This document shows, piece by piece, positions 6,682-23,623 of a DNA stretch of 25,469 nt. This DNA is from a virus. The notes under the pieces were generated by a model. It was not told where the DNA came from and did no database searches. It saw only the letters and a program-made list of their open reading frames with translations. The position numbers and the translations under genes were made by a program. Numbering within the stretch: the stretch's first letter is position 1; every line of letters begins with the position of its first letter. Location: positions 1-25,469 of the IMG/VR virus record IMGVR_UViG_3300021197_000580; one strand, given 5' to 3'.

Positions 6682-7329
6682 ATGAAACTTATTGCAGAAC
6701 AGATACAAGAAGTAGAATACATCACCGAAGCCAAAGAGGACGGTGGTAAGGATATGAAGATTCGTGGAATCTTCATGCAGGCAGACATGAAAAACCGTAA
6801 TGGTCGTGTCTACCCTATGGGCGTACTTCAAAAAGAAGTCGCTCGTTATAATAAAGAATTTGTTGCTGAAGGTCGTGCGTTTGGGGAACTGGGTCATCCA
6901 GAAGGCCCCACTGTCAATCTTGACAGGGTATCGCATATGATTACAAAACTGGAAGCTGATGGAAAGAACTTTATTGGTGAGGCGAAACTGCTCTCAACTC
7001 CAATGGGGGAAATTGCGAAAGCACTAATCAAGGATGGTGGAAAACTTGGTGTCTCTTCAAGAGGCATGGGGTCTATCGAATCTAAGAGTGGTGCTAATTA
7101 TGTGAAAGATGATTTTTATCTTGCCACTGCGGCAGATATTGTTGCAGACCCATCTGCACCTCAAGCCTTTGTTGAAGGGATTATGGAAGGTAAAGAATGG
7201 ATTTGGAACAACGGAATACTGAAAGAAGTTGATGTTGCCGAAATCAGGGATGAGATTAATGAGAATGTAAGACGCAAACAAAGTAATGTTTCCGCTCTTG
7301 CCTTCGCAAAATTCTTGTCAAAAATTTAA
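6682..7329 (+). CDS. 21: prohead core protease gp21
   Basis: 215 aa (T4 gp21 is 212 aa). Serine protease of the prohead core that, after shell assembly, cuts scaffold and capsid proteins next to (I/L)-x-E. The catalytic His is in E-L-G-H-P (His72) and the Ser in G-V-S-S-R-G (125/126), as in this herpesvirus-assemblin-like family; the upstream N-R-N-G-R-V-Y-P motif (38-45) is also typical. An internal I-T-E|A at 14-17 fits the enzyme's own consensus and may be the N-terminal autoprocessing site. Start ATG lies 4 bp after the preceding stop. The next gene (22) has its own late promoter just after the gp21 stop. Confidence 0.95.
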   Translation: MKLIAEQIQEVEYITEAKEDGGKDMKIRGIFMQADMKNRNGRVYPMGVLQKEVARYNKEFVAEGRAFGELGHPEGPTVNLDRVSHMITKLEADGKNFIGEAKLLSTPMGEIAKALIKDGGKLGVSSRGMGSIESKSGANYVKDDFYLATAADIVADPSAPQAFVEGIMEGKEWIWNNGILKEVDVAEIRDEINENVRRKQSNVSALAFAKFLSKI

Positions 7330-7333
7330 TCAT

Positions 7334-7341
7334 TATAAATA
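7334..7341 (+). promoter_or_regulatory. late promoter TATAAATA for scaffold gp22
   Basis: Exact T4-type late element starting 5 bp after the gene 21 stop and 32 bp before the gene 22 ATG. It would boost scaffold over protease, which is needed in far larger amounts. Confidence 0.85.
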
Positions 7342-7372: not shown

Positions 7373-8542
7373 ATGTCAGAACTAGACAAAACCATTGAGG
7401 AATTGGAAGCAGAAGTCAGTGCAGAGCTTGAAGAAGCAAAGCAACCAACTGATGGTGCCGCTAAAGCCGAAACAATGGACAAGCAAGAGGGTGACGTTGA
7501 AGATTTGGGCAAGGCTGTGGATAAACCAGAGTCAGGCGAAAGTATTGGTAAGAAAGCTGCTGCAAAAGTTTCTAAAGCTGCAGAACCAAAACCTAATGCA
7601 ACCAAAGAAGAAGCTGAACTCGCTGATGACGATGCAGAAGAAATCGTTGAAGGCAAAATGAAGAAAGCAGATATGCTCGCTGCAATGTATTCCGAAATGG
7701 AAAAAATGAAAGCGACAGATTTGAAAGCATCTTACGACAAGATGATGACAAAAGATGAGGAAGAAAAGAAAGAGGAGTCAGTTGACGAATCTACTCTTGA
7801 TGACCGTCTTGCATCAGTTGACGTATCAGAAGATGTGACTGCACTTACAGATGGTGAAGAACTATCTGAAGAGTTCAAAGAAAAGGCATCGACCATCTTT
7901 GAAGCTGCTGTCAAGTCTAAACTTCGTTCAGAAGTTGAAAGAATTGAAGAAGCAAAAGTGCAAGAAGTTGCTGAAGAAACAAACAGAATTCATACTGAAT
8001 TGACTGAAAAAGTTGATGCATATATGAACTATGTTGTAGAAGAATGGATGAAAGAAAATGAAATCGCAATCGAAAGAGGCCTTAAAGGTGAGATTGCAGA
8101 AGACTTCATTTCTGGATTGAAAAACCTTTTCACTGAACATTATATCGATGTTCCAGATGAGAAGTACGATATTCTGGGAACTCAATCTACAAAGATTGAA
8201 GAACTAGAAGCCAAACTGAATGAACAAATCGAGAAGTCTGCTTCACTGAAAAGTGAAAAAGATGTATTGGTAAGGGAATCAGTATTTGCAGAGGTTGCTT
8301 CGGACTTGGCTGACACTGAAGTCGAAAAGTTTAAGTCTCTTGCAGAAGATGTTGATTTTACAGATGAAGATGCCTTCAGAGGTAAACTTGACACGCTGAA
8401 GGAAAGTTATTTTCCGAAAGCAACAACTGTCGCTGAATCAGTGGATACTCCATCAGAAGATGCTGGTGAATCCTTCGATACAACTGGTGCTATGAGTGCT
8501 TATATGAGTGCGATTAGTAAAAATGTAAAGCGTGCAAAATAA
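7373..8542 (+). CDS. 22: prohead core scaffold protein gp22
   Basis: 389 aa, longer than T4 gp22 (269 aa). Major internal scaffold on which the gp23 shell assembles; degraded by gp21 afterwards. It is highly acidic and Lys/Glu-rich, with coiled-coil-like stretches at about 1-25, 185-230 and 265-300. The N-terminal 150 residues are low-complexity Ala/Glu/Lys, probably an expansion relative to T4. L-E-E|A at 19-22 fits the gp21 cleavage consensus. The start is the ATG at 7373 with AAGGAG at 7361-7366; the frame is open upstream to 7286 but that would overlap gene 21 and the late promoter. Identity rests on position between 21 and 23 plus composition and C-terminal pattern. Confidence 0.88.
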   Translation: MSELDKTIEELEAEVSAELEEAKQPTDGAAKAETMDKQEGDVEDLGKAVDKPESGESIGKKAAAKVSKAAEPKPNATKEEAELADDDAEEIVEGKMKKADMLAAMYSEMEKMKATDLKASYDKMMTKDEEEKKEESVDESTLDDRLASVDVSEDVTALTDGEELSEEFKEKASTIFEAAVKSKLRSEVERIEEAKVQEVAEETNRIHTELTEKVDAYMNYVVEEWMKENEIAIERGLKGEIAEDFISGLKNLFTEHYIDVPDEKYDILGTQSTKIEELEAKLNEQIEKSASLKSEKDVLVRESVFAEVASDLADTEVEKFKSLAEDVDFTDEDAFRGKLDTLKESYFPKATTVAESVDTPSEDAGESFDTTGAMSAYMSAISKNVKRAK

Positions 8543-8600: not shown

Positions 8601-9884
8601 ATGTTTCAAACAGAACATTTACAGGAAAAGTGGCAACCAGTCCTTGAACACAATGACCTTCCAGAAATTGCTGATTCATATCGTAAGGCTGTAACTACTG
8701 TTATCCTAGAAAACCAAGAAAAAGCACTTAAAGAGGACAAAGGTTTCCTCGGAGAAGCTGCTCCAACTAACGCAACCGGCAGTGCCGTAGATAACTGGGA
8801 TCCAATTTTGATTTCACTTGTCAGACGTGCTATGCCAAACTTGATTGCATACGATGTCGCTGGTGTACAACCAATGACAGGGCCAACTGGTCTTATCTTC
8901 GCAATGCGTTCAAGATACACTAACCAAGCTGGTGCAGAGAATCAGTATGCAGAAGCAGACTCAGATTTCTCAGGTGCTGGTACACAAGCTGGTACAAACC
9001 CTGCTGTTCTTAACGATGGTTCGCCAGGAACATATACTGGTGGTACTGGTATGACTACTGCTGCTGCAGAAGCACTTGGTGACTCTGCATCTAACTCTTT
9101 CGCTGAGATGTCATTCTCAATCGAAAAGAACTCAGTAGAAGCAAAGTCTCGTGCTCTTAAGGCAGAGTACACAATGGAACTTGCACAAGACCTTAAGGCA
9201 ATCCACGGTTTGGATGCTGAGACAGAACTTGCAAATATCCTTTCTTCTGAAATCTTGAATGAGATTAACAGAGAACTTATCAGAACAATCTATGTAACTG
9301 CAAAGCCAGGTGCTCAGGTTGATACTGCAACATCAGGTATCTTTGATATGGATGTTGACTCAAATGGTCGTTGGTCAGTTGAGAAGTTCAAAGGACTTAT
9401 GTTCCAACTTGAAAGAGATGCAAACGCAATCGCTCAAGAAACTCGTAGAGGTAAAGGTAATGTAATTATCTGTTCATCTGATGTTGCTTCTGCACTTCAA
9501 ATGGCAGGTGTACTTGATTACACTCCTGCTCTTAACAACAACTTGAATGTTGACGATGCTGGTAATACTTTTGCTGGTGTTCTTAACGGACGCTTCAAGG
9601 TGTACATTGACCCATATTCAGCAAACCAAGCTGCAAAACAGTATTACACTGTTGGATATAAGGGTACATCACCATACGATGCTGGTCTTTTCTACTGCCC
9701 ATACGTTCCATTGCAAATGGTTCGTGCAGTTGGTGAGAACACATTCCAACCTAAAATCGGTTTCAAGACTCGTTATGGTCTTACTGCAAACCCATTTGCT
9801 GGTGGTGCAACTGTCAGAAGTGGTGCTCTTACTGCTAACGACAACGTATACTACAGAAGAGTACAAGTTACTAACATCATGTAG
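8601..9884 (+). CDS. 23: major capsid protein gp23
   Basis: 427 aa, HK97-fold shell subunit; shorter than T4 gp23 (521 aa), as in marine relatives that lack the T4 insertion domain. The N-terminal propeptide (1-52) ends at L-G-E|A, a good gp21 cleavage site aligned with the T4 cut after residue 65. Other family signatures: P-N-L-I-A-Y-D-V-A-G-V-Q-P-M-T-G-P-T-G at about 79-97, M-R-S-R-Y at about 102, the S-F-S-I-E-K-N-S-V-E-A-K-S-R-A-L-K-A-E-Y-T segment near 171-191, and V-Y-I-D-P-Y near 335. Preceded by its own late promoter and AAGGAG, and followed by a strong terminator, so it can be expressed as a short abundant message. No gp24-type vertex paralogue follows in this window. Confidence 0.97.
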   Translation: MFQTEHLQEKWQPVLEHNDLPEIADSYRKAVTTVILENQEKALKEDKGFLGEAAPTNATGSAVDNWDPILISLVRRAMPNLIAYDVAGVQPMTGPTGLIFAMRSRYTNQAGAENQYAEADSDFSGAGTQAGTNPAVLNDGSPGTYTGGTGMTTAAAEALGDSASNSFAEMSFSIEKNSVEAKSRALKAEYTMELAQDLKAIHGLDAETELANILSSEILNEINRELIRTIYVTAKPGAQVDTATSGIFDMDVDSNGRWSVEKFKGLMFQLERDANAIAQETRRGKGNVIICSSDVASALQMAGVLDYTPALNNNLNVDDAGNTFAGVLNGRFKVYIDPYSANQAAKQYYTVGYKGTSPYDAGLFYCPYVPLQMVRAVGENTFQPKIGFKTRYGLTANPFAGGATVRSGALTANDNVYYRRVQVTNIM

Positions 9885-16435: not shown

Positions 16436-16744
16436 ATGAAACAGAGTGAAAGATTTTATCAGTTGCTGGAAGAAATGAAAGCAACGCATGATGCAAAACG
16501 ACACGACTATGCAAGTACAGAAGATGTATTCGCAAACTTTAGAACGTGCGAGATGGCAGGAATTCCAGCATGGAAGGGATGTTGTGTTCGTATCGGTGAC
16601 AAGTTCAGTCGTATTATGGGGTTTGCAAAGAAAGAAAAACTAAAGGTTAAGGATGAAGGTATTAAAGATACTCTCATCGACATGGCAAACTATGCTCTTA
16701 TTGCACTTATTCTTTATGAGGAAGAAAACTCTAAGGATAAGTAA
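16436..16744 (+). CDS. Nmad1 (DUF1599)-like protein
   Basis: 102 aa, predicted all-alpha. The pattern H-D-A-K-R-H-D-Y-A near 18-26, F-A-N-F-R-T near 31-36, V-R-I-G-D-K-F-S-R near 50-58 and D-E-G-I-K-D-T-L-I-D-M-A-N-Y-A near 73-87 is that of the DUF1599 / nucleotide modification associated domain 1 family. This family has been linked by genomic context to phage nucleotide and DNA modification and resembles MazG-type all-alpha NTP pyrophosphatases; the biochemical activity is not established here. It starts 1 bp after gene 46 ends with AAGG at 16423-16426, and its TAA overlaps the ATG of the adjacent methyltransferase. Confidence 0.7.
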   Translation: MKQSERFYQLLEEMKATHDAKRHDYASTEDVFANFRTCEMAGIPAWKGCCVRIGDKFSRIMGFAKKEKLKVKDEGIKDTLIDMANYALIALILYEEENSKDK

Positions 16745-17325
16745 TGGCATTAGTAGTGGTAAAAAGATTATCACGCAATGCTGCAAGTGATGAGTGTTAT
16801 ACACCTTGTGACCAAGTACTTCCTATATTGGATTACTTGGACAAGGACAAAACTTATTACGAAGCCACGAGTGGTAAGTCATCCCAGATAGTTGATGGTT
16901 TCAATAAGTACGATTATAATATCGTACCTAGTAACAACAAAGACTTCTTCAGTTGTTCACCAGATGATGTCTATGACGGCATCATAACGAATCCACCCTA
17001 TAGTATCAAAGACAACTTTATTGAACATTGTTATATGTTGAGGAAACCCTTTGCATTATTTCTGCCTGTTGCATCTTTCCAAGGTGGACGCAGAGGACAG
17101 ATGTTTATGGACTATGGTATGTCTGCACTTGTGTATAACTACAGAGTAGACTTTACAGGCGGTGGTTCTCCACCATTCGGTAACGCATGGTTTATGTGGG
17201 GTTTCGATACTATGCCTGTCAACACTATCAAGTGGGTAAACAATCCAAAATTACGCAGTTCTACAGACGCTGTGACTACCAGACAAAATGAAATTAAATC
17301 GGATTTAACTGCATTTTTCTCTTGA
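16744..17325 (+). CDS. N6-adenine DNA methyltransferase-like protein
   Basis: 193 aa. N-P-P-Y at 83-86 is the catalytic motif IV of amino-methyltransferases. The N-terminal D-E-C-Y-T-P (16-21) is typical of small phage adenine methyltransferases. The AdoMet-binding motif I position reads Y-E-A-T-S-G-K-S-S (about 39-47) where D/E-P-x-x-G-x-G is expected, so cofactor binding may be altered. A Pro/Gly loop G-G-G-S-P-P-F-G-N-A-W near 139-149 follows. No target-recognition domain is obvious at this length. It overlaps the Nmad1-like gene by one base (TAATG). Its C-terminal codons TCT-TGA lie in a sigma-70 promoter. A cognate restriction enzyme is not present in the window, so it is an orphan. Confidence 0.75.
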   Translation: MALVVVKRLSRNAASDECYTPCDQVLPILDYLDKDKTYYEATSGKSSQIVDGFNKYDYNIVPSNNKDFFSCSPDDVYDGIITNPPYSIKDNFIEHCYMLRKPFALFLPVASFQGGRRGQMFMDYGMSALVYNYRVDFTGGGSPPFGNAWFMWGFDTMPVNTIKWVNNPKLRSSTDAVTTRQNEIKSDLTAFFS

Positions 17326-18773: not shown

Positions 18774-18781
18774 TATAAATA
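18774..18781 (+). promoter_or_regulatory. late promoter TATAAATA for hsp20
   Basis: Exact late element; predicted +1 near 18787, leaving a 56-nt leader to the hsp20 ATG. Together with the upstream TATAAT it suggests expression at more than one stage. Confidence 0.8.
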
Positions 18782-18842
18782 AAAGTGATATGCTGAATAA
18801 TCAGGTATCAAATGTATCTTGCTTTAATAAAGGAGAAAAAAC

Positions 18843-19274
18843 ATGAATACATCTTTAACTATTGACCCATCAAGGGTTAACACTTACTCTATCGGTTTCG
18901 ATAGACTTTTTGATTCGATGCTTAATCATCCATCAAAAAACTTTACTTACCCACCATACAATATCGTAAAACATAGTGATGATAATTACACTATTGAAAT
19001 GGCAGTTGCTGGTTTCTCAAAAGACGATATTGCAATTGAAACGAAAGACAATGCTCTTTTAGTTCAGTCAAAGGATTCTGGTGAGGATAAGACTGAAGTG
19101 GACACTCAAGAGTATCTTCACAAAGGTATTTCGCAGAGGTCATTCAAGAAAGCCTTTACACTTGCAGAAGACGTTTTTGTAAGGGGTGCCGATATGAAAG
19201 ACGGATTGCTTTATATCAATTTGGAAAGAATTATTCCAGAGGAGAAGAAACCTAAAGTGATTAAAATTAAATAA
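18843..19274 (+). CDS. hsp20: small heat shock protein Hsp20
   Basis: 143 aa. Alpha-crystallin-domain holdase that keeps unfolded proteins soluble. N-terminal arm with F-D-R-L-F-D-S-M-L (19-27), then P-P-Y-N-I-V-K (37-43) and the domain: Y-T-I-E-M-A-V-A-G-F-S-K-D-D-I-A-I (49-65), L-L-V-Q-S-K (72-77), Y-L-H-K-G-I-S-Q-R-S-F-K-K-A-F-T-L (90-106), and D-G-L-L-Y-I-N-L (119-126) standing at the usual x-G-x-L site. Ends with K-V-I-K-I-K in place of the usual I-x-I tail. Similar genes are frequent in marine T4-like phages, where they probably assist virion assembly. RBS AAGGAGA at 18830-18836; late promoter upstream, terminator downstream. Confidence 0.93.
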   Translation: MNTSLTIDPSRVNTYSIGFDRLFDSMLNHPSKNFTYPPYNIVKHSDDNYTIEMAVAGFSKDDIAIETKDNALLVQSKDSGEDKTEVDTQEYLHKGISQRSFKKAFTLAEDVFVRGADMKDGLLYINLERIIPEEKKPKVIKIK

Positions 19275-21256: not shown

Positions 21257-21645
21257 GTGGATATGAGTTAAAACATTATCTAAAATCTCTCAATGAAACA
21301 AAGGAGAATCTGTTAGAATCAGATGACCCTATGTGGGAGAAGAAGTACTCACCGTTCATCATTAACAAGTGTCTGGCACCGTTCAACGATACCATCATGC
21401 TTGTTAATGAGATGAACATGAGACACCACCTTGATTCAAAACTCCAATATGATTTTTTACTAAATACTATTAGGTCTAAGAAACGGTATGCACCTTGGGT
21501 AAAGGGTGACAAGTTGAAAGATTTAGAGTATGTAAAAGAGTATTTTGGATATAGTAATGAAAAAGCAAAAGCCGCTCTCAAACTACTTGATAATGAACAA
21601 ATTAATACTATCAAAGATAGTTTGAATAAAGGTGGAAGAAAATGA
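21253..21645 (+). CDS. 62: clamp loader small subunit gp62
   Basis: 130 aa, shorter than T4 gp62 (187 aa) but like the versions in marine relatives. Assigned from its place between 44 and regA and from P-F-I-I-N-K-C-L-A-P-F (about 34-44), the segment L-Q-Y-D-F-L-L-N-T-I-R-S-K-K-R-Y-A-P-W-V-K (about 64-84), which matches T4 F-N-Y-L-M-A-A-V-P-R-G-K-R-Y-G-K-W, and a helical C-terminus. Start at ATG 21253 overlapping the gene 44 stop as ATGA; a TTG at 21247 would add two residues. The stop overlaps regA as ATGA. Confidence 0.88.
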   Translation: MSGYELKHYLKSLNETKENLLESDDPMWEKKYSPFIINKCLAPFNDTIMLVNEMNMRHHLDSKLQYDFLLNTIRSKKRYAPWVKGDKLKDLEYVKEYFGYSNEKAKAALKLLDNEQINTIKDSLNKGGRK

Positions 21646-22046
21646 CAGAAATTGATTGGCATCCAGAAGCGATGCTAGAAGTAAAACTAAAAGAACCAGA
21701 TGACTTCTTAAAGGTTCGTGAAACATTATCAAGGATTGGTGTTGCCTCTCGTAAAGAGAAAAAACTATATCAGTCCTGCCACATTCTACACAAACAAGGA
21801 AAGTACTATATCGTACACTTCAAAGAATTGTTTGCTCTAGACGGCAAGGGTACAAACTTTAACGAAAATGATATATCAAGACGTAACTCTATCGCTAGTT
21901 TACTAGGGGATTGGGGACTGATTGAAATCATGGGTTCTGCTGAACCGAAAGCACCATTGTCACAAATCAAAGTGATTGCATTCAAAGAAAAGAATGAGTG
22001 GGTGTTAGAGACTAAATATAACATAGGTAAAAAAAGAGAAGCTTAA
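21642..22046 (+). CDS. regA: translational repressor RegA
   Basis: 134 aa (T4 RegA 122 aa). RNA-binding protein that blocks ribosome entry on many early phage mRNAs, including those of the clamp-loader operon in T4. Strong match: E-V-K-L-K-E-P-D-D-F-L-K-V-R-E-T-L-S-R-I-G-V-A (about 13-35), L-Y-Q-S-C-H-I-L-H-K (about 42-51), Y-Y-I-V-H-F-K-E (about 55-62), S-I-A-S-L-L-G-D-W-G-L-I-E-I (about 83-96), E-W-V-L-E-T-K-Y-N-I-G near the end. About nine extra residues precede the T4 start. Starts within the ATGA overlap with gene 62. In T4 gene 43 follows soon after regA; here two other genes intervene. Confidence 0.95.
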   Translation: MTEIDWHPEAMLEVKLKEPDDFLKVRETLSRIGVASRKEKKLYQSCHILHKQGKYYIVHFKELFALDGKGTNFNENDISRRNSIASLLGDWGLIEIMGSAEPKAPLSQIKVIAFKEKNEWVLETKYNIGKKREA

Positions 22047-22047
22047 A

Positions 22048-23424
22048 TTGACACAATCTTTTTCAAAATTCATTACAGAAGAAAAAACTGATGGAAACTA
22101 TAAGGTAGTTATTCTTTCAGTTGAGTCCGGCGATGTACGAAAGAACACTGCTGATAAATTTGAAAAAGAAGCAAAGAAGCTTGGATTAGATGTTATACTT
22201 TGTGATTTCAAAAATGCATCTTTAATATTTGATGATGGTAAATACATCATTAAGAATAAGGACGGCAGTATGCAAGTTAGTCCTAAAGATACTGTAGTTT
22301 TTGTAAGAGGTACACCCACACGAGATAGTCACTTAGACATGATATCAGAACTAGAACGAATTGGTATAACTTGTATTAACAGTAGAACCACTATTAGTAT
22401 TTGTGCTGATAAGTATCGTAGTTATGTTCGTCTAAAAGATTTCAGACTAGACCAACCAAAGACAGTTTTACTTCCATCAGAAAATGATATTGACGCTGCA
22501 ATGGAAGAGTTGGATTCTAAGTTTCCTATCATTCTAAAAACACTTAGAGGCGCTGGTGGGGTTGGAGTTTTATTTGTAGAATCAAAACGTGCATTGGATT
22601 CATTAGTACAGTTGATTTACAAACAAGACCCTGATACAGATATTCTCATTCAAGAATATATTAAAACTGATGGTGATATTCGTGTACTTATAGTTGGTTC
22701 TAAAATCATAGGTACAATGAAACGAGAAGTTGTTGAAGGTGATTTCAGAAGTAACTACACACAGGGTGCTGGTGTTAAGAAATATGATTTATCAGAAGAA
22801 GAAATCAGACAGTGTTTGATTGCCGCAAAAGCAGTCGATGGTGATTTTGTTGCAGTAGATTTTATTTCACATAAAGGTAAACCACACTTCTTGGAAGTGA
22901 ATAGTTCGCCAGGCACAGAAGGTGTAGAAGAAGCAAACTCTGGACTGAATGTTGCAAAAGAAGTTCTAGAGCATTATAAAGAATCAAAAAACAGATACAC
23001 TGTTCCTATCAGATGTGGATTTCACGAGATGGTTGATATCAAACCTTTCGGTGAAGTTGAAACTAAATTTGATACAGGAAACAGTGCTTACTCAGTTCTT
23101 CATGCTGAGGACATAAAAATTAATGGTAGTAAAATTACATTCACTACGTTTGGTGGACAGACCCTAACTACTAAACTTGTGAAAGATTATAAAGCGAGAA
23201 CTGGTGGCGGTGTTGATAAAAGGCCAGTCGTTCAGTTGGAAGTTGAATTCATGGGACACACACATCAATTGATGTTTGGTCTTGATGATAGAAGTAAAAG
23301 AGGAACTAGTGTTCTTCTAAATAGATTTGCCATGACGGAGATGAATGTTATGGTAGACCCCCAGAAGAAATTGATTATTACAACAATGAAAGGCGAAAAT
23401 AATGACACTACTGGAAGCGATTAA
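22048..23424 (+). CDS. RimK-type ATP-grasp ligase fused to RimB-type aspartyl protease domain, with capsid-targeting-like N-terminus
   Basis: 458 aa. Residues 1-12 (S-F-S-K-F-I-T-E|E at 4-12) resemble the T4 capsid targeting sequence and gp21 site. Residues about 18-310 are RimK-like: pre-ATP-grasp part with V-F-V-R-G-T-P-T-R, I-N-S-R-T-T-I-S-I-C-A-D-K (110-122), lysine and glycine loop K-T-L-R-G-A-G-G-V-G-V (164-174), Q-E-Y-I (202-205) and the metal site E-V-N-S-S-P-G (283-289). RimK adds glutamate to the C-terminus of ribosomal protein S6. Residues about 320-445 match RimB/ATP-dependent zinc protease (DUF785), a retropepsin-like domain: F-D-T-G-N-S-A-Y-S (341-349), R-P-V-V (392-395), L-D-D-R and L-L-N-R (423-426). 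TTG start at 22048, the only plausible one, 1 bp after regA; no in-frame ATG before residue 75. Stop overlaps the next gene. Confidence 0.9.
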   Translation: MTQSFSKFITEEKTDGNYKVVILSVESGDVRKNTADKFEKEAKKLGLDVILCDFKNASLIFDDGKYIIKNKDGSMQVSPKDTVVFVRGTPTRDSHLDMISELERIGITCINSRTTISICADKYRSYVRLKDFRLDQPKTVLLPSENDIDAAMEELDSKFPIILKTLRGAGGVGVLFVESKRALDSLVQLIYKQDPDTDILIQEYIKTDGDIRVLIVGSKIIGTMKREVVEGDFRSNYTQGAGVKKYDLSEEEIRQCLIAAKAVDGDFVAVDFISHKGKPHFLEVNSSPGTEGVEEANSGLNVAKEVLEHYKESKNRYTVPIRCGFHEMVDIKPFGEVETKFDTGNSAYSVLHAEDIKINGSKITFTTFGGQTLTTKLVKDYKARTGGGVDKRPVVQLEVEFMGHTHQLMFGLDDRSKRGTSVLLNRFAMTEMNVMVDPQKKLIITTMKGENNDTTGSD

Positions 23425-23623
23425 ACAACACAATGAAGGTAAGATTGCATTGCATAAAGCAAACATTGCAGTATACTTAAAGAACCCTGCTGGTATTGGA
23501 GAGCATTCTGATATTGCAGAAGCAGTGGAATCTGAACTAGTAAAGATTGCCAATGCTCAAGATATCATTGACATGGTAGATAAACACTTCACTACGGAAG
23601 AACAAATTTCACTTTTCTCTTGA
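23402..23623 (+). CDS. small helical protein of unknown function
   Basis: 73 aa, with the motif Y-L-K-N-P-A-G-I-G-E-H-S-D-I-A-E-A-V-E-S-E-L (25-46) that I recall from uncharacterised proteins of marine T4-like phages. Two or three amphipathic helices, no membrane segment or signal peptide. It starts in the last 23 bp of the RimK-RimB gene, so the two are probably coupled. Its last codons TTC-TCT-TGA lie in the -35 region of the polymerase promoter. Function unknown; a helper of its upstream or downstream neighbour is possible. Confidence 0.75.
   Translation: MTLLEAIKQHNEGKIALHKANIAVYLKNPAGIGEHSDIAEAVESELVKIANAQDIIDMVDKHFTTEEQISLFS

What the first reader, a model, noticed from the sequence alone, without database searches (positions are those of the whole stretch)
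22048..22083. RimK-RimB fusion starts with a T4-type capsid targeting sequence: a candidate injected ribosome-modifying enzyme
Seen: the N-terminus reads M-T-Q-S-F-S-K-F-I-T-E-E. Known: T4 internal proteins packaged in the head (IPI-III) begin with a capsid targeting sequence of the type M-K-T-Y-Q-E-F-I-A-E|A, cut by gp21 after (I/L)-x-E. The two align as aromatic-x-x-F-I-x-E|x, and the prohead protease gp21 is encoded in this window, with a matching L-G-E|A site in gp23. Inference: the enzyme is co-packaged, trimmed by gp21 after residue 11, and ejected with the DNA, so it could alter host ribosomal protein S6 (or another glutamylation target) before any phage gene is expressed. I know of no described injected RimK. 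Weak point: the gene lies in the replication operon and lacks an exact late promoter nearby.
Basis: partly seen in the sequence, partly recalled or inferred. Interest (0 to 1): 0.85.

Follow-up and report, generated by a model that had tools for sequence, protein, structure and literature searches.

The report
Phage-packaged glutamate ligase (RimK) with capsid tag
A common ocean virus of bacteria appears to pack an enzyme that can glue glutamate chains onto proteins inside its capsid, using a short N-terminal address tag that stays the same while the enzyme behind it is swapped, so the enzyme could act on the host cell as soon as infection starts.

Summary
The 458-aa ORF at 22048-23424 starts MTQSFSKFITEE, a 17-residue tail outside the RimK fold. 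In one gene the match to the T4 capsid targeting sequence (CTS) could be luck, but four tests support it. (1) The pattern F-x-x-[FY]-[IL]-x-E is kept in 228 of 236 phage relatives with complete N-termini (19 of 22 representatives below 70% identity), 3-5 residues after the start codon in all but one, while neighbouring residues vary. (2) The window phage is Melnitz-like (gp21 95%, gp23 91% identical), yet its RimK body is only 36% identical to Melnitz RimK; DNA identity holds through the tag codons, collapses right after them and recovers at the next gene. At least three enzyme bodies sit behind one tag. (3) In S-CREM2, a T4-like cyanophage with published virion proteomics, the same peptide starts the packaged SAM hydrolase, kinase and cytidylyltransferase, and lies at residues 18-24 of packaged Cas9 (Fisher p=0.008 for the strict peptide). 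(4) A RimK-retropepsin homologue was already detected in YerA41 virions. Packaging is therefore likely. Trimming by gp21, ejection and the target are unproven. S6 is doubtful: S6 in seven SAR11 genomes lacks a C-terminal glutamate.

The parts
22048..22083 (+). N-terminal peptide MTQSFSKFITEE: capsid targeting sequence, core F5-x-x-F8-I9-x-E11, proposed gp21 cut after E11
   Evidence: conserved in 228 of 236 relatives; low column entropy against the linker; same peptide on MS-proven virion proteins of S-CREM2
22084..22098 (+). Variable linker KTDGN; junction where the enzyme body has been exchanged relative to Melnitz
22099..22998 (+). RimK-type ATP-grasp alpha-L-glutamate ligase (residues 18-317); K122, K164, D271, E283 and N285 correspond to E. 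coli RimK K100, K141, D248, E260 and N262
   Evidence: Pfam RimK 7.2e-38; TIGR00768 170.4 bits against cut-off 143.4; VIA Z 31.2 to 7qys, RimK residue 1 aligned to window residue 18; invariance in 29 sequences
23002..23355 (+). Retropepsin-like aspartic peptidase domain of the RimB/Rlo group (residues 319-436)
   Evidence: PF05618 in 29 of 29 relatives; RloA3/RloA2 profiles; VIA Z 17.4 to 2pma and 17.0 to RloA2 9g59
23071..23079 (+). Catalytic D342-T343-G344 of the peptidase domain
   Evidence: invariant in A2; a DTG[NS] motif is present in all 166 long relatives
21642..22046 (+). regA, left flank of the cassette (90% identical to Melnitz RegA)
   Evidence: Pfam Translat_reg 9.9e-45
23402..23623 (+). 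73-aa conserved ORF (phrog_1811), right flank of the cassette
6682..7329 (+). gp21 prohead protease, cognate CTS-cleaving enzyme
   Evidence: Pfam Peptidase_S77 1.3e-31; 95% identical to Melnitz
7373..8542 (+). gp22 scaffold (core to which CTS cargo binds in T4)
   Evidence: Pfam T4_CASP 1.9e-70; TATAAATA at 7334
8601..9884 (+). gp23 major capsid protein with FLGE|A gp21 site after residue 52
   Evidence: Pfam Gp23 1.4e-149

Best explanation
The gene encodes a capsid-packaged effector. Residues 1-11 are a T4-type capsid targeting sequence that binds the gp22-based scaffold core during prohead assembly, and gp21 probably trims it. The cargo, a RimK-type glutamate ligase fused to a RimB/Rlo-type retropepsin, is then carried in the head and ejected with the DNA. 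In the new host the ligase would add glutamates to the C-terminus of a host protein while the peptidase trims such tails or stimulates the ligase. The tag is fixed in the locus while the enzyme behind it is exchanged by recombination, as expected for a host-facing effector. Shown here by sequence: the tag, its conservation, the swap, the domain folds and catalytic residues. Shown by others by MS: the same tag on virion proteins of a related phage, and a tagless homologue in virions. Inferred: packaging of this protein, gp21 cut, ejection, target.
For: Motif kept in 228/236 relatives, 3-5 aa after the start codon in 227/228, and in 19/22 representatives below 70% identity; entropy 0.62 bits at the four key positions against 1.85 in the linker and 1.50 over residues 19-312. 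The first aromatic is always F and the third key site only I or L, though the search pattern allowed more. The tag lies outside the RimK fold. Both architectures, with and without the peptidase, carry the tag. Body swap behind the tag at the regA-p73 locus. S-CREM2: strict motif at gene starts in 4/43 virion against 1/156 non-virion genes, p=0.008; loose motif 7/43 against 4/156, p=0.002. S-SCSM1 virion NMNAT starts MKSFLQFLKEA. T4 control recovers ipII and ipIII. YerA41 g112 homologue in virions.
Against: No virion proteomics exists for this phage, Melnitz or Mosig in the material I could read. P1' is often E, Q or D, not the A of IPII/IPIII and gp23. No conserved late promoter precedes the gene. 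T4 61.1 and uvsW.1 carry the same peptide and I found no evidence that they are packaged. Eight relatives lack the strict motif. YerA41 RimK is in virions without a CTS, and that proteome contains many enzymes that may be contaminants. The cargo target is unknown. The S-CREM2 test rests on five strict hits.
Confidence: 0.75

Rival explanations
1. RimK is an ordinary middle-expressed host-takeover enzyme made after infection; the conserved N-terminal peptide docks it to a phage complex in the cell (for example the replisome or the scaffold) and has nothing to do with packaging.
For: The gene sits between regA and gp43 in the replication operon without a conserved late promoter. T4 61.1 and uvsW.1 bear the peptide with no evidence found of packaging.
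Against: The peptide marks MS-detected virion proteins of unrelated fold in S-CREM2 and S-SCSM1, and matches the four experimentally mapped IPIII CTS positions. A RimK homologue is middle-expressed yet virion-associated in YerA41.
Confidence: 0.15
2. The protein is packaged through the CTS but works inside the prohead or on the phage's own proteins (for example glutamylating capsid or internal proteins), not on the host.
For: Hosts of the Mosig branch lack a canonical S6 acceptor, so the usual host target is missing. The RimK partner is unknown.
Against: RimK needs ATP and free glutamate, plentiful in cytoplasm. Frequent exchange of the body behind the tag suggests a host-facing target.
Confidence: 0.12
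3. The N-terminal similarity is shared ancestry or chance, not function.
For: Expected chance hits are 0.09 in the window and 0.2-0.5 per genome, so one hit is unremarkable. Within a clade, shared ancestry explains part of the identity.
Against: Key positions stay fixed while flanking residues and the body diverge to 36% identity. The motif is retained in loci where the gene has moved away from regA (L109, L227, L230, L233, L237).
Confidence: 0.03

Closest known systems
T4 internal proteins IPI, IPII, IPIII and Alt (CTS-tagged, gp21-cleaved, injected)
   Same: N-terminal 10-19 aa peptide of the type Y/F-x-x-F-I-x-E, cognate gp21 and gp22, cargo divergent behind a conserved tag. Alt is also an injected protein-modifying enzyme.
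   Different: Cargo is a glutamate ligase plus retropepsin, not an ADP-ribosyltransferase or a small basic inhibitor. P1' is Glu here. No virion evidence yet for this phage.
S-CREM2 virion-associated SAM hydrolase, APH-like kinase, cytidylyltransferase, Cas9 (Kyanoviridae)
   Same: Same peptide F-x-x-F-[LM]-x-E on non-structural enzymes, in the same viral family; their presence in particles is shown by MS (PMC10665884).
   Different: Different enzymes. That paper does not link their packaging to a CTS in the text I read.
YerA41 g112 / YerA41_066 RimK-like protein
   Same: RimK-retropepsin fusion in the same domain order, 33% identical, MS-detected in virions, middle expression class.
   Different: No CTS-like N-terminus; phage not of the T4 type.
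Bacterial RimK, RimB and the RimBK hybrid (Pseudomonas, Desulfotalea)
   Same: Same two enzyme families, glutamate ligase and retropepsin.
   Different: The hybrid has RimB at the N-terminus of RimK; here the order is RimK then peptidase. Bacterial forms have no CTS.
Cyanophage RimK (S-RIM12, S-RIM32, S-CAM8, phrog_2599)
   Same: RimK family, Kyanoviridae.
   Different: About 30% identical, start directly at the first strand (MKLWMLGNRL), no tag, no peptidase; different loci.

Membership tests
T4-type CTS-tagged internal protein | N-terminal peptide with the four IPIII positions (aromatic 4, F7, I8, E10) | tested here: met
   F5, F8, I9, E11; 228/236 relatives; positions from PMC9026906
T4-type CTS-tagged internal protein | Cognate prohead protease gp21 and scaffold gp22 in the genome | tested here: met
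T4-type CTS-tagged internal protein | Cargo differs behind a conserved tag | tested here: met
   three bodies, 36-45% mutual identity, behind MT[QE][SK]F-x-x-FI-x-EE at the regA-p73 locus
T4-type CTS-tagged internal protein | Cleavage by gp21 after (I/L)-x-E | tested here: inconclusive
   I-T-E present, but P1' is E; P1' varies. Needs N-terminal MS
T4-type CTS-tagged internal protein | Present in virions and ejected into the host | not testable with these tools
   indirect only: YerA41 homologue in particles, same tag on S-CREM2 virion proteins
RimK family alpha-L-glutamate ligase (TIGR00768) | Profile score above curated cut-off | tested here: met
   170.4 bits against 143.4
RimK family alpha-L-glutamate ligase (TIGR00768) | ATP/Mg-binding residues conserved | tested here: met
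   K122, K164, D271, E283, N285 invariant in 29 sequences, mapped by the alignment
S6-specific RimK (PRK10446 equivalog) | Score above equivalog cut-off | tested here: not met
   100.2 bits against 331
S6-specific RimK (PRK10446 equivalog) | Host S6 ends in glutamate acceptor | tested here: inconclusive
   seven SAR11 S6 proteins end in K, N or Y, so not met for SAR11; but the window phage's host is probably OM43-like and its S6 was not tested
RimB (NF052261) | Retropepsin fold with D-T-G | tested here: met
   VIA Z 17 to RloA and RloA2, Z about 9 to retroviral proteases; D342-T343-G344
RimB (NF052261) | RimB equivalog profile | tested here: not met
   no RimB hit for the window domain at E 0.01; RloA3 best at 38.4 bits, below its cut-off 210
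Bacterial RimBK hybrid | RimB domain N-terminal to RimK | tested here: not met
   order reversed here; hybrid order from PMC11957791

The most novel reading that the evidence does not exclude
A virion-delivered writer-plus-trimmer of protein polyglutamylation: abundant marine T4-like phages inject a pre-made glutamate ligase fused to a retropepsin that modifies a host protein other than S6 before phage genes are expressed, and they swap the enzyme behind a fixed packaging tag as hosts counter-evolve.
Probability: 0.45. Interest if true: 0.85.

Novelty: new variant of a known kind. Interest (0 to 1): 0.7.

Why it matters
T4 showed long ago that phages can inject enzymes that modify host proteins (Alt). 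If this reading holds, the same delivery route in very common ocean phages carries a glutamate ligase, a type of protein modification not previously tied to injected phage effectors in the literature I could search. It also gives a simple, checkable rule: in Kyanoviridae an N-terminal F-x-x-[FY]-[IL]-x-E predicts virion cargo. That would let one list candidate injected effectors from genomes alone.

Tried and rejected
Late promoter as support: six exact TATAAATA sites on the + strand lie near late-type genes (gp18, gp22, gp23 and others), but upstream of rimK there is only CTAAATA at 22012, inside regA codons; a TAAATA there is present in only 96 of 226 relatives, so it is not used as evidence. 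Chance test on single genomes: Mosig shows one hit (RimK), the window one (RimK), so single-genome enrichment is too weak. DUF6267 as a second cargo family: motif strict in only 44 of 78 complete relatives, so left as a lead. S6 as target: weakened by SAR11 S6 C-termini. Chance or ancestry alone: rejected by the body swap and the codon pattern; E11 invariance is by construction of the search pattern and is not counted. In the whole-model structure list only RimK-like and other ATP-grasp folds appear; the peptidase fold was found only after folding it alone. Foldseek against BFVD gave weak matches to other phage ATP-grasp and protease proteins. The supplementary table of YerA41 could not be opened; Table 3 in the main text was used.

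Full report
What was checked. The ORF at 22048-23424 (+) begins TTG and reads MTQSFSKFITEEKTDGNYKVVIL. The IPIII capsid targeting sequence of T4 was mapped by others: residues 4 and 7 direct targeting, 8 and 10 direct processing, and CTS propeptides are 10-19 residues long (PMC9026906). IPII and IPIII read MKTYQEFIAEA in the T4 record. The window peptide matches all four positions with a shift of one (F5, F8, I9, E11). gp21, gp22 and gp23 with FLGE|A are in the same window.

Is it more than chance? For one gene, not clearly: the motif is expected at about 0.09 gene starts in the window and 0.2-0.5 per genome. I therefore collected relatives. Of 236 with complete N-termini, 228 carry [FYW]xx[FYW][ILVM]xE, and in 227 of those 228 the first aromatic lies 3-5 residues after the start codon. 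Among 22 representatives below 70% identity, 19 keep it strictly. Mean column entropy is 0.62 bits for the four key positions, 1.85 for residues 12-18, 2.07 for 19-60 and 1.50 for 19-312. Within matching sequences the first aromatic is always Phe through two codons, the second is Phe or Tyr, and the third key site is Ile or Leu, while positions between change amino acid freely. The Glu is fixed by the way that set was chosen. The motif stays when the gene sits elsewhere than after regA (L109, L227, L230, L233, L237).

A tag with exchangeable cargo. The window phage is close to the OM43 phage Melnitz: gp21 95%, gp23 91%, gp44 and gp62 92%, RegA 90% identical. RimK is not: 36%, and Melnitz lacks the peptidase domain. 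Aligned DNA is about 85-90% identical through the end of regA and the tag codons, falls to about 50% right after FITEE, and returns to about 80% or more at the 73-aa ORF at 23402. A third body (L242 type, 40-45% identical to the other two) sits behind the same tag and an 89-92% identical RegA. So one packaging-type tag fronts at least three enzyme bodies at one locus. Of 226 proteins examined, 166 have the peptidase domain with DTG and 60 do not; tagged members occur in both groups.

Does the tag mean packaging in this viral family? S-CREM2 is a T4-like cyanophage of Kyanoviridae with a published virion proteome (PMC10665884, Table 3). Its non-structural virion proteins begin MKDFDSFLEE (SAM hydrolase), MKRFDAFLTEE (APH-like kinase) and MKNFSSFLTEA (cytidylyltransferase); Cas9 has LRFASFMAEA near its start, and two hypothetical virion proteins begin MKDLHSFLTEQ and MQTFSMFFSED. 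Over 199 annotated genes, the strict motif occurs in 4 of 43 virion genes and 1 of 156 others (p=0.008); a looser one in 7 of 43 and 4 of 156 (p=0.002). The virion-detected NMNAT of S-SCSM1 (PMC9602691) starts MKSFLQFLKEA, and P-SSM2 T4-GC190 starts MKSFSQFLTET; T4-GC190 is called an experimentally determined virion protein in PMC3037559. The count of strict hits is small, but the direction is consistent.

Independent sighting. The nearest RimK-retropepsin fusion outside the family, YerA41_066 (33% identical, annotated 'structural protein'), corresponds by gene order to g112 'Ribosomal protein modification protein*' in Table 3 of PMC7354516, where the star marks proteins found by LC-MS/MS in particles; it is listed as middle-expressed. 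It has no CTS and the phage is of another type, and that proteome holds many enzymes, so this is support and not proof.

The enzyme. Residues 18-317 are RimK: TIGR00768 170.4 bits against cut-off 143.4, VIA Z 31.2, rmsd 2.6 over 286 residues to P. syringae RimK, whose residue 1 aligns with residue 18 here. Residues 1-15 are modelled with pLDDT below 50. ATP and Mg ligands known for E. coli RimK (from general knowledge: K100, K141, D248, E260, N262) map to K122, K164, D271, E283, N285, all invariant. The C-terminal domain folded alone matches RloA2 and RloA peptidases (Z 17.0 and 16.6) and retroviral proteases (Z about 9). By profile it is nearer RloA3 than RimB, so 'RimB' is a loose name. The bacterial RimBK hybrid has the opposite domain order (PMC11957791).

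Mechanism, step by step. Tag, conservation, body swap and domains: shown here. Tag marks virion cargo in the family: shown by others' MS combined with my reading of their sequences. Packaging of this protein: inferred, likely. gp21 cut after E11: inferred; P1' here is Glu and is variable across relatives. Ejection and action on the host: inferred from T4 IPs. Target: unknown. S6 is doubtful for the SAR11-infecting branch, because S6 proteins from seven SAR11 genomes end in KK, QK, SN, KN or KY, and none of ten SAR11 genomes has a RimK above the family cut-off (these are partly incomplete genomes). Hosts of the window phage are probably OM43-like, given its closeness to Melnitz; their S6 was not tested.

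Against the finding. The gene lies in the replication operon without a conserved late promoter. T4 61.1 and uvsW.1 carry the same peptide and I found nothing on their packaging. No virion proteome of Melnitz or Mosig was available. The Melnitz paper does not mention RimK in the text searched. No paper found describes an injected RimK; only open-licence papers were searchable.

Verdict. The packaging idea is well supported, the S6 idea is not, and the cut site is open. It is a new variant of a known kind: CTS-delivered cargo with an unexpected enzyme.

Noticed in passing
L373:7704-12846, L373:3837-5081, L375:24608-25468 (S-CREM2): Virion-borne Cas9, SAM hydrolase, kinase and cytidylyltransferase of a cyanophage all carry the same N-terminal peptide: a possible general cargo tag of Kyanoviridae.
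   Followed up: partly
L029:18966-19130 (-) and T4 coordinate 114210 (+): T4 61.1 (MKTFKEFIKED) and the ORF at the end of uvsW (MLLEFKQFLYEA) carry CTS-like N-termini; packaging unknown to me.
   Followed up: no
L025:10951-12036 and L025:12029-13276 (Melnitz): Two adjacent unknown proteins, one DUF6267, start with CTS-like peptides (MQGFKTFLSEAK, MINFSKYITEDK); the motif is only partly kept in their relatives (21 of 28 and 44 of 78).
   Followed up: partly
window 18774-19274: hsp20 gene with an exact TATAAATA late-promoter-like site 69 bases upstream of its start.
   Followed up: no
L034:2962-3840 (S-RIM32): An untagged RimK lies just downstream of gp23 in a cyanophage, in the head gene cluster, without a CTS.
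   Followed up: partly
window 23402-23623: 73-aa ORF (phrog_1811) overlaps the 3' end of rimK and marks the right edge of the exchanged cassette.
   Followed up: partly
window 16744-17325: DNA methyltransferase-like ORF (phrog_799), without a match in Melnitz or Mosig at E 1e-4.
   Followed up: no
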